Shown: positions 362 to 17,981 of the stretch, piece by piece
Layout: the number at the start of each line of letters is the position of its first letter
How positions within the stretch are numbered: the first letter of the stretch is position 1
Translations under genes and position numbers: made by a program
DNA from: Rubrobacter aplysinae
GTDB lineage: Bacteria; Actinomycetota; Rubrobacteria; Rubrobacterales; Rubrobacteraceae
Length of the DNA stretch: 64,000 nt
Reading direction: 5' to 3'
Assembly (NCBI RefSeq): GCF_001029505.1
Contig: NZ_LEKH01000006.1
Span: forward strand, 1-64,000
Notes under the pieces: model-generated
What the model was told of the DNA's origin: nothing
Seen by the model: the letters and a program-made list of their open reading frames with translations, nothing else
Database searches by the model: none

Positions 362-550
362 GCCCAGGCTCCCGTGGAAGCACTCGTAAAGGCTCGCGCT
401 GGAGGGTCATGGGCGTATAGAGTGGGCAATCCGAGCATACCCGGCATCATACAGCCCGACCGATAACGGTTCCGGGACCGGAAACGTGAGAAAAAGAACG
501 TAAGAAAAAGAGACAAGGCCCGGCGCGGGTACCGCAGCCGGGCCGGATAG

Positions 551-642
551 CGGAGAGGGAAGGATTTGAACCTCCGGTGCCGGGAGTACCGGCACGACGA
601 TCCCGAAGGATCGCCGCATTAGGCCACTCTGCCACGCTCTCC
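551..642 (-). tRNA. Serine-type tRNA-like gene with abnormal anticodon loop (no serine anticodon)
   Basis: The leftward 92-nt sequence folds as a class II tRNA. It has a GGAGAG/CTCTCC acceptor helix, a serine-style D arm, a very strong 7-bp variable arm (GTGCCGG/CCGGCAC) and a T arm with TTCAAAT. Against the normal tRNA-Ser next to it there is an extra C in the 5' acceptor strand and one extra nucleotide in the anticodon loop. The loop reads CCTTCGGG (complement of 602-609), so it could close into a C(UUCG)G tetraloop hairpin. No NGA or GCU serine anticodon can be placed. It may be a tRNA pseudogene, an allo-tRNA or a non-translational tRNA-like RNA. Confidence 0.7.
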
Positions 643-724
643 TCGCGGGCCTTACAGAGGCGAGAGTGTAAAGGTTAGCCGGGGCACGTTCAACGGATAA
701 GCGGAAAATCTTCGCGGCGCGGTG

Positions 725-814
725 CGGAGAGGGGGGGATTCGAACCCCCGGTGCCGGGGTTACCGACACAACGGTTTTCGAGACCGCCGCAATAGTCCAC
801 TCTGCCACCTCTCC
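725..814 (-). tRNA. tRNA-Ser(CGA)
   Basis: The leftward 90-nt class II cloverleaf has acceptor GGAGAGG/CCTCTCC, anticodon stem GCGGT/ACCGT and a 7-nt loop CTCGAAA with anticodon CGA (complement of 778-780). It has a long variable arm, a T arm GGGGG-TTCGAAT-CCCCC and discriminator G. No CCA is encoded. It decodes UCG. It lies 82 bp upstream of the abnormal serine-type tRNA in the same orientation and is the natural reference for it. Confidence 0.95.
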
Positions 815-921
815 GCGACGGAGTCTAAACCCTGCCCCGGGGTGGTTCAACTGCCGGTTAGATAGCGAGCCTGCTCCCGGCACAGCGTAAATAGCCCAGC
901 GCATGATATTATTCACACAAT

Positions 922-1455
922 ATGAAAAAAGCGTCGCGACAGGCATTGTGGCTGATCGGGGTACCGCTGGTAGCCTTTGCAGGCGGGATAGTGGGATTTT
1001 TCCCCGTGTTCACCCTGGGACTTATGATTCCTATCTTCCTGGTCTTACCTCTGTCGCTACTGTCGGGGGCGTGGCTCGCTACGCTGTGTACCGGGTGGGT
1101 CGCCAATCTTGCTCGGTGGGGGCACAGCCGAAGCCGCCTGTTGGCCATCCTCGGCGTCTCTTTGATCGGCGGTTTCCTTGCTCTTCTACCCTACTGGGGC
1201 ACGGCCTGGCTCATAAACACCCTCTACTGGCCATCCAACTCCGCTCTAATCGGGACCATCTACTACTCCCCTTACCTGGCCGGGACTATCGTCTTCGTGG
1301 CGATCACCTCTCTGGCGACGTGGAGGCTGCGCCTCCCAATGCAAGGAGGGCTAACCGGTGAACTCCGGTTAACCCTCCTGCTGCTGGTAGCCGTACCGGC
1401 GCTTATAGTCGGTACGATATTTGCTGGCTGCAACCTAACTTACTGTGGAGCTTAG
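922..1455 (+). CDS. Four-helix membrane protein of unknown function
   Basis: This 177-residue protein starts at an ATG (MKKASRQALWLIGVP). It contains about four hydrophobic segments: roughly residues 8-30, 32-60, 70-100 and 115-175, with a break at residues 135-145. The last third has a short loop rich in Arg and Gly. No known family was recognised. It stands alone between the tRNA pair and the lower-GC gene at 1516, convergent with the latter. Codon choice is less GC-biased than in the arginine genes, which suggests either an acquired gene or a fast-evolving membrane protein. Confidence 0.65.
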   Translation: MKKASRQALWLIGVPLVAFAGGIVGFFPVFTLGLMIPIFLVLPLSLLSGAWLATLCTGWVANLARWGHSRSRLLAILGVSLIGGFLALLPYWGTAWLINTLYWPSNSALIGTIYYSPYLAGTIVFVAITSLATWRLRLPMQGGLTGELRLTLLLLVAVPALIVGTIFAGCNLTYCGA

Positions 1456-1515: not shown

Positions 1516-2223
1516 TTACAGTTCAGGCCAAGCTCTGTTTATCTCTTCGCAGGATGCTTCAATGGCTTTGCGCCGTCGTATGTGTGATCGAGGTGCGGTA
1601 AATATACGCTGTCCGAAAACGTCTACTACATAGCAAAGACGCCGATCACAGGGAAATTGAGAATTCGCTTCAACGAATTGCTGCAGCATAGTAGCTGCAT
1701 AAGAACCGGCATTATCGGACATTGTGTAACTTTTACTCATGTGCAGTTTTACTGCTCCTGCAACAGAATCACCGGAACGTTTGTGCTTAGTAATCAACAG
1801 CTCTGGTTTAATACTTACAGAAACACTCTGTACTAATAACCTGGGGGGAGTCTGTTCGCCTTTGGTTAAGACAAGGCTGCCAAAGTCGAGCTTATCAGCC
1901 ATATCGATAAAAGAAAGCAATGCCTCTGCACAAACTTTGTTTCTGTTCTCTTGCCAGTCTGTACTTGCTGTCGTATTTCGGAACTCGTCTACTTTGTCTA
2001 AAAGGTCTTCATAGTCTAGATTTCCAGAGAGGAAGTCAGCTACAAGATCCTGTGCGTCAGAATATCTGGATACGATAAAGTCTTTAGGCTTTTTCTGGTC
2101 CAGTACGATGCGGCGGCGACGAGTTGCACTGTTAGTGGCCGCGTACTCGCCCAATTTATTTACAGATATTCTAGGCTCAACTCGTTCCTTTAGCACAGTC
2201 TTTCCTCCTCTAGAAGGGTGCAA
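1516..2223 (-). CDS. Orphan 235-residue protein of lower GC
   Basis: An ATG at 2223 opens a soluble 235-residue protein with no signal peptide or membrane segment. The N-terminal part has an R-I-S-V-N-K-L-G-E-Y motif, then a basic R-R-R-R-I-V-L-D-Q-K-K-P patch, then alternating helices and strands. The C-terminus is again basic (SHIRRRKAIEA). I recall similar S-V-N-K-L-G-E-Y proteins as hypotheticals in genomic islands, but no function can be assigned. The A+T-rich codon use is clearly unlike nrdJ next door and supports horizontal acquisition. A GTG at about codon 10 is an alternative start. Confidence 0.7.
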   Translation of the reverse strand: MHPSRGGKTVLKERVEPRISVNKLGEYAATNSATRRRRIVLDQKKPKDFIVSRYSDAQDLVADFLSGNLDYEDLLDKVDEFRNTTASTDWQENRNKVCAEALLSFIDMADKLDFGSLVLTKGEQTPPRLLVQSVSVSIKPELLITKHKRSGDSVAGAVKLHMSKSYTMSDNAGSYAATMLQQFVEANSQFPCDRRLCYVVDVFGQRIFTAPRSHIRRRKAIEASCEEINRAWPEL

Positions 2224-16980: not shown

Positions 16981-17981
16981 TCTACTGGCGATTCTAAAGT
17001 TTAGAAAGCTGCCTCTATGCCGAGTTCGTGAGTCGCCAGTATCAGGACGCAGATGTTATGACAGAGGACCTTGGCTAGAACCTCGTTGACCTGAGCCGTA
17101 TCGCTCTTACCTTTTACCGAGGCTCCGAACTTGCGCTTTATCATGCTGAACGTGGATTCGACGTTGCTCCGGCGGTGGTAGTGATCCATGAAGCCTTCTC
17201 TGTTGAACATGAAGTAGTGGTACATCTTCGCCCACGTCGAATCGTCTTCGGGAACCACGGTATTTGACTTGAAGGGGATGAACGGCGTAGCTCCGAAGCC
17301 GTTCACGAGATCCATGTTCTGCTTGCCGAGGTAGGCTTTGTCTGCCGAGACTTCCCGAAGCTGGAAATTTTCGGCGGTCTGCTTTACCAGCGGCTTGAAG
17401 AAGTAGGAGTCGTGGTGTGTCCAGCCCGAAATATCCATCCCGGTAACTATGTTGGTCCGAACGCCGCAGATAAGGTGAGCCTTGAACCACTCCCGACCCT
17501 GATCCTTCTTTCCGTACTTCTTCTCGTGCCAGCGGGCAAAAGTGCTGGTGGAGAATCCCGAAGCGTCTACGGCGAAATCAGTCTCTACAGACTTCAAAGG
17601 CAAGCTACTCAGAGACACTAGTTCTTTCAGCACGTTAGTGAGGGCGGGATCTGCAAGATACCGATTTACAGAGTTGAAGTGGGCGGCTTTGTCAATTAAA
17701 CCGTCAGCGTAAGCCTCTTGCAGATCAGAGGTAAAACGCCTTGCCGAGAAACCGACATAAACCTTGTAGACGCTAGCAAACACCATATCCGCAAGCGGAA
17801 GTCGCGGTCTACCCTTAGTCTGCTCGGGCTGCTCAATGCCACTACAGAGATCGGCAAGTAGCTCTGTGAAACGCACCTTTTCCTCTACTTGAGCGGCGTT
17901 GTAGGCGGTCCAAGAGCGGGATTTGCTTCCCTCTATCATGCAGTAATTATACTTGACCGCTCAAGCATATACACCAGTAGA
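16981..17981. mobile_element. Nested insertion sequence with DDE transposase
   Basis: TCTACTGGCG at 16981 and its inverted counterpart TCTACTGGTG ending at 17981 bracket the transposase with about 20 and 40 bp to spare. Flanking GGAT and ATCC may extend the inverted repeats imperfectly. No target duplication is evident. Alternatively the transposase is the native one of the 4.6-kb element and the short repeat is chance. Confidence 0.5.
17001..17939 (-). CDS. DDE transposase (IS4/IS5-like fold)
   Basis: The 312-residue RNase-H-type transposase starts at ATG 17939. The catalytic triad is placeable as Asp in V-E-T-D-F-A-V-D-A-S-G-F, Asp in V-S-A-D-K-A-Y-L-G and Glu in Y-H-R-R-S-N-V-E-S-T-F-S-M-I-K-R-K-F-G. 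The N-terminal region (about 1-110) is the DNA-binding part. The frame is intact, so it may be active. It is oriented against the element's other left-hand genes. It might mobilise either the nested IS or the whole element; relatives of the IS903 group give 9-bp duplications like the one outside. Confidence 0.9.
   Translation of the reverse strand: MIEGSKSRSWTAYNAAQVEEKVRFTELLADLCSGIEQPEQTKGRPRLPLADMVFASVYKVYVGFSARRFTSDLQEAYADGLIDKAAHFNSVNRYLADPALTNVLKELVSLSSLPLKSVETDFAVDASGFSTSTFARWHEKKYGKKDQGREWFKAHLICGVRTNIVTGMDISGWTHHDSYFFKPLVKQTAENFQLREVSADKAYLGKQNMDLVNGFGATPFIPFKSNTVVPEDDSTWAKMYHYFMFNREGFMDHYHRRSNVESTFSMIKRKFGASVKGKSDTAQVNEVLAKVLCHNICVLILATHELGIEAAF

What the first reader, a model, noticed from the sequence alone, without database searches (positions are those of the whole stretch)
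551..642. Serine-type tRNA-like gene whose anticodon arm can close into a UUCG tetraloop
Seen: beside an ordinary tRNA-Ser(CGA) lies a close relative with an extra C in the acceptor strand and an 8-nt loop CCTTCGGG. Its outer bases can pair to give C(UUCG)G, one of the most stable RNA hairpins. No serine anticodon can be placed. The class II variable arm is stronger than in the normal copy, so the structure is maintained rather than eroded. Possibilities are a non-decoding tRNA mimic, an allo-tRNA with altered decoding, or an early pseudogene.
Basis: partly seen in the sequence, partly recalled or inferred. Interest (0 to 1): 0.72.

Follow-up and report, generated by a model that had tools for sequence, protein, structure and literature searches.

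The report
Serine tRNA copy lacking an anticodon
Next to its normal serine tRNA gene this Rubrobacter-family bacterium carries a diverged copy that should still fold as a tRNA but whose decoding loop has closed into a stable hairpin; no relative has it, so it is most likely a non-decoding pseudo-tRNA, although its intact stems and promoter leave room for a role outside translation.

Summary
Window 642-551 (minus strand) is a fifth serine-type tRNA gene, with an extra C in the acceptor strand and an 8-nt loop, CCUUCGGG, that closes into a 7-bp C(UUCG)G hairpin (-9.0 kcal/mol closed, -2.6 open). A Ser-tRNA covariance model built without it scores it 79.9 bits, above the genome's own UGA and GGA tRNAs.

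The genome has one normal tRNA for each serine anticodon (CGA, UGA, GCU, GGA), so this gene is dispensable for decoding. It is a lineage-specific paralogue of the neighbouring tRNA-Ser(CGA). It has changed about ten times faster than that copy, yet none of its six stem substitutions breaks a pair (P about 0.004). It keeps a tRNA-type promoter, and a GC-rich hairpin with a T-rich tail lies downstream.

No orthologue was found in 38 other Rubrobacteraceae genomes (one from the same genus, with the flanking genes in order), 396 genomes of the phylum, genome contigs or viral contigs. One other family member (G051) has an unrelated Ser-type tRNA with a remodelled anticodon arm, so such copies recur.

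Best reading: a transcribable, probably chargeable, non-decoding pseudo-tRNA. A selected seryl-donor role is possible but unproven.

The parts
551..642 (-). Serine-type tRNA-like gene without a usable anticodon: 92 nt, no encoded CCA, extra C between acceptor positions 6 and 7, UUCG-capped 7-bp anticodon arm
   Evidence: ARAGORN, Ser covariance model 79.9 bits, folding
599..612 (-). GATCCTTCGGGATC, the perfect palindromic part of the anticodon hairpin; replaces the CUCGAAA loop and alters the top of the stem
   Evidence: only match in the window; closed -9.0 vs open -2.6 kcal/mol
665..693 (-). Putative promoter TTGAAC-N17-TACACT of the variant gene
   Evidence: Motif TTGAAC-N16..18-TANACT occurs only twice in 64 kb on both strands, once before each of the two Ser tRNAs; the same -10 type precedes other tRNA genes of this genome; under the threshold of the consensus scan
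505..545 (-). Terminator-like hairpin GGCCCGGC..GCCGGGCC followed by a T-rich tail
   Evidence: fold -26.1 kcal/mol; interrupted stem, not called by the strict scan
725..814 (-). Normal tRNA-Ser(CGA), source of the duplication
   Evidence: closest relative of the variant
822..850 (-). Putative promoter TTGAAC-N17-TAGACT of tRNA-Ser(CGA)

Best explanation
It is a lineage-specific duplicate of the adjacent tRNA-Ser(CGA) gene that has lost decoding and become a pseudo-tRNA. Shown: it is closest to the CGA gene, keeps all arms base-paired, keeps a promoter motif of the tRNA type, has no usable anticodon, and is absent from relatives. Inferred: it is transcribed, trimmed and given CCA. SerRS reads the acceptor end and the long variable arm and not the anticodon, so it may also be serylated. 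With the loop locked as C(UUCG)G it should not pair with a codon. Most likely it was an extra functional Ser tRNA for some time, which explains the compensated stems, then lost its anticodon in one local event (for example hairpin-templated copying, or imprecise recombination in the anticodon arm) and persists as a relic without a conserved role.
For: All four serine anticodons exist elsewhere in the genome. Variant absent from 38 other Rubrobacteraceae, including a same-genus genome that keeps the flanking genes in order, from 396 genomes of the phylum, from genome contigs and viral contigs at the pattern used, and from plasmids and phages. Accelerated change: outside the loop about 10 substitutions on the variant branch against 1 on the CGA branch (p 0.012). 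The acceptor insertion and the loss of a 7-nt loop are typical loss-of-decoding changes. A second, unrelated aberrant Ser-type tRNA in G051 is likewise a singleton, as expected if duplicates are sporadically lost.
Against: Six stem substitutions with no broken pair have P about 0.004 under random change, or 0.02 outside the anticodon stem, and the promoter hexamers are kept. A free-running pseudogene would not look this tidy, so constraint acted for at least part of its history. The loop is an unusually stable tetraloop rather than random decay.
Confidence: 0.58

Rival explanations
1. A selected non-decoding seryl-tRNA: charged by SerRS but barred from the ribosome by the UUCG cap, so its serine goes to tRNA-dependent transferases such as FemABX-type cell-wall enzymes, or it acts as a regulatory or decoy tRNA. 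This would work like the non-proteogenic tRNA-Gly of staphylococci or B. cereus tRNAOther.
For: Stem pairing kept despite fast change; promoter motif and terminator-like hairpin; acceptor pairs 1-6, discriminator G73, long variable arm and T/D-loop contacts kept; the genome holds three FemAB-type ORFs against one or two in most relatives; a single ordinary SerRS.
Against: No orthologue anywhere searched; FemAB genes occur in relatives without the variant; the acceptor bulge may hinder processing or charging; no expression data.
Confidence: 0.24
2. Allo-tRNA or frameshift-type tRNA that inserts serine at a non-serine codon, or at a four-base codon, using UUC, UCG or UUCG in the 8-nt loop.
For: Ser-type body with a non-Ser loop, as in allo-tRNAs (PMC7609411); 8-nt loops can decode in rare cases such as yeast mitochondrial tRNA-Thr.
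Against: Loop closure favoured by 6.4 kcal/mol; C instead of U at position 33; the 7/5 body with a bulge is not the 8/4 or 9/3 that defines allo-tRNAs.
Confidence: 0.05
3. Recombination scar: the palindromic anticodon arm is the residue of a mobile element that integrated in and left the tRNA gene.
For: Two ORFs absent from relatives (922-1455 +, 1516-2223 -) lie on the other side of the CGA tRNA; anticodon arms are common integrase targets (general knowledge); local GC is low.
Against: Neither ORF matches an integrase or phage family; no att repeat was identified; no similar sequence in plasmids or phages. It explains the origin only, not any present role.
Confidence: 0.08
4. Assembly or sequencing artefact near a contig end (the gene lies 551 bases from the end of contig C6).
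For: Singleton; contig end close by; read depth not available.
Against: About 10 dispersed, pair-compatible differences plus a distinct promoter and flank cannot come from mis-assembly of the CGA copy.
Confidence: 0.03

Closest known systems
Bacillus cereus tRNAOther (pseudo-tRNA, PMC3399842)
   Same: tRNA-shaped gene not used in translation, with limited distribution
   Different: tRNAOther keeps a Trp anticodon, is part of a longer Fur-regulated RNA and occurs in several strains of the B. cereus group; this one has no usable anticodon, a Ser body and its own promoter motif
Allo-tRNAs (Mukai et al. 2017, reviewed in PMC7609411)
   Same: Serine-type body with long variable arm and a non-serine loop
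   Different: Allo-tRNAs have a 12-bp 8/4 or 9/3 acceptor domain and a readable anticodon; here the body is 7/5 with one bulged base and the loop is closed
Non-proteogenic staphylococcal tRNA-Gly for peptidoglycan (cited in PMC3399842)
   Same: Extra isoacceptor-like copies available outside translation
   Different: By general knowledge those keep a Gly anticodon and escape through EF-Tu contacts; here the anticodon arm is changed, and no link to the cell wall is shown
Ordinary tRNA pseudogenes
   Same: Lineage-specific duplicate with insertion and altered loop
   Different: Stems all paired and promoter motif kept

Membership tests
tRNA-Ser (class II) | Cloverleaf with long variable arm, G73, U8, A14, G18-G19, T-loop UUCRA | tested here: met
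   79.9 bits to the Ser model, all pairs standard
tRNA-Ser (class II) | 7-nt anticodon loop with U33 and a serine anticodon | tested here: not met
   8-nt CCUUCGGG, closed as UUCG tetraloop
Allo-tRNA | 12-bp acceptor domain as 8/4 or 9/3 | tested here: not met
   7 pairs with one bulged C plus a 5-pair T stem; 8/4 is possible only with a C-C mismatch
Allo-tRNA | Readable anticodon used in translation | tested here: not met
   no U33, closed loop; decoding itself not assayed
Non-decoding pseudo-tRNA | tRNA fold kept, decoding lost | tested here: met
   (prediction from sequence, not an assay)
Non-decoding pseudo-tRNA | Transcribed, and absent from polysomes | not testable with these tools
   promoter motif and terminator-like hairpin only
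Functional non-coding RNA | Conservation with compensatory change across genomes | tested here: not met
   no orthologue in 38 other family genomes or 396 phylum genomes

The most novel reading that the evidence does not exclude
A serine-accepting tRNA whose decoding end has been replaced by a UUCG cap, kept by selection as a dedicated non-translational amino-acid donor or regulator, in a family (Rubrobacteraceae) where Ser tRNA copies with remodelled anticodon arms arise repeatedly (own genome and G051).
Probability: 0.2. Interest if true: 0.7.

Novelty: new member of a known kind. Interest (0 to 1): 0.36.

Why it matters
If functional, it would be a natural experiment separating tRNA charging from decoding: SerRS ignores the anticodon, so a capped Ser tRNA could feed serine to non-ribosomal chemistry. 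Even as a relic it shows how a tRNA copy can keep its body and promoter motif after losing its anticodon. The generic Rfam tRNA model does not report it, so such genes may be under-counted.

Tried and rejected
Orthologue in relatives: blastn over 39 family genomes and the Ser model over the same genomes gave none. The fifth Ser tRNA of G053 is a normal GGA copy. Pattern for class II tRNAs with a CTTCGG loop: own genome only among 396 of the phylum; three unrelated hits in genome contigs, one of them a Ser-type tRNA with a CGG anticodon. Phage and plasmid origin: no match. Flanking homology between the two tRNA units beyond the genes: not significant. Second or unusual SerRS: none. Searches for cell-wall serine in Rubrobacter and for UUCG-capped tRNAs in papers gave nothing specific.

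Full report
What is there. On the minus strand, window 642-551 reads GGAGAGCGTGGCAGAGTGGCCTAATGCGGCGATCCTTCGGGATCGTCGTGCCGGTACTCCCGGCACCGGAGGTTCAAATCCTTCCCTCTCCG. ARAGORN reports a tRNA of unknown type with a two-base 'anticodon'. The generic Rfam tRNA model does not list it. A covariance model built from eight Ser tRNAs without this sequence scores it 79.9 bits, more than the genome's own tRNA-Ser(UGA), 76.3, and tRNA-Ser(GGA), 75.5.

The anticodon arm. The closed form, seven pairs capped by C(UUCG)G, has -9.0 kcal/mol; the five-pair form with an open 8-nt loop has -2.6. The RNA should therefore be closed practically always. U33 is a C, and no serine anticodon can be read.

The host. The window lies in a 3.19-Mb, 33-contig genome. 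G008 in the same family has the exact length (3,022,875 bp) of Rubrobacter xylanophilus AA3-22, and G019 that of R. xylanophilus DSM 9941, so the family is Rubrobacteraceae. The genome has normal tRNA-Ser genes for CGA, UGA, GCU and GGA and one full-length SerRS. The variant is not needed for decoding serine codons.

Origin and rate. The gene is closest to the neighbouring CGA tRNA; its D-loop and variable-arm features are shared in combination only with that copy. Against the family's CGA tRNAs, about ten substitutions outside the loop fall on the variant branch and one on the CGA branch (p = 0.012). Six of the substitutions lie in stems and none breaks a pair. Two pairs changed on both sides (30-40 in the anticodon stem, 51-63 in the T stem), one G-C became G-U, and one U-G became C-G. 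Random substitution would leave no broken pair with P about 0.004, or 0.02 if the anticodon stem is left out because it could have been rewritten in a single event. Constraint on the fold therefore acted during at least part of the time since duplication. It cannot be said whether this was before or after the loop changed.

Expression signals. The motif TTGAAC-N16..18-TANACT occurs exactly twice in 64 kb, at 850 and at 693 on the minus strand, once before each Ser tRNA. Similar -10 boxes precede many other tRNA genes of the genome. A GC-rich hairpin of -26.1 kcal/mol with a T-rich tail lies downstream of the variant. The strict consensus scan calls neither element, so these are inferences. Outside the tRNA the two units show no significant similarity.

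Distribution. The family keeps the order membrane-protein gene, tRNA-Ser(CGA), ribonucleotide reductase in many genomes. The same-genus genome G001 has it without the variant. Nothing orthologous was found in 38 other family genomes by blastn or by the Ser model. A class II pattern with a CTTCGG loop finds only this gene in 396 genomes of the phylum, and gives no relative in genome contigs or viral contigs; the host's own records may be left out of those two collections. Plasmids and phages have no match.

A second case. The Ser model also picked out G051:C65:2461-2362 (64.4 bits): a Ser-type body with perfect acceptor, T and variable arms, but with an anticodon arm of seven pairs and a long remodelled loop. 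ARAGORN finds no tRNA there. It too is a singleton, shares no neighbouring gene with our locus, and comes from a MAG of 83% completeness. Two independent cases in 39 genomes suggest that Ser tRNA copies in this family repeatedly lose the anticodon while the body stays intact. That fits either sporadic pseudogenes or recurrent recruitment.

Interpretation. The reading best supported is a non-decoding pseudo-tRNA of recent, lineage-specific origin (0.58). The main rival, a selected seryl-tRNA used outside translation, is supported by the tidy stems and promoter motif, and weakly by three FemAB-type ORFs in this genome. It lacks conservation and expression evidence. Altered decoding is unlikely. 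Compared with known kinds, it works most like B. cereus tRNAOther (PMC3399842) but differs in having no usable anticodon. It fails the 8/4 or 9/3 criterion of allo-tRNAs (PMC7609411).

Noticed in passing
window 18116-18043 (-): A complete tRNA-like gene with an 8-nt anticodon loop (CUCUCCAA, ARAGORN 'ctcc') in a 50% GC island beside a DDE transposase (17001-17939). The same-genus genome G001:C111 has an 85% identical tRNA-like gene followed by a shorter one, next to related DNA. Its 3' part also resembles tmRNA 3' ends of relatives. Possibly non-canonical tRNAs travelling with a transposon.
   Followed up: partly
L175 / G051:C65:2461-2362 (-): Another Ser-type tRNA body with intact arms but a remodelled, apparently non-decoding anticodon arm in a different Rubrobacteraceae genus; singleton.
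   Followed up: partly
L127 1186-1279 (JAPOSC010000028.1, Thiotrichales MAG): Class II, serine-like tRNA carrying a CGG (proline) anticodon; a possible Ser-for-Pro chimeric tRNA.
   Followed up: no
window 922-1455 (+) and 1516-2223 (-): Two ORFs without Pfam, PHROG or PADLOC match, inserted between tRNA-Ser(CGA) and the ribonucleotide reductase gene only in this genome.
   Followed up: partly
G000:C1:96421-104485: Three FemAB-type ORFs within 8 kb in this genome, against one or two in most relatives.
   Followed up: no
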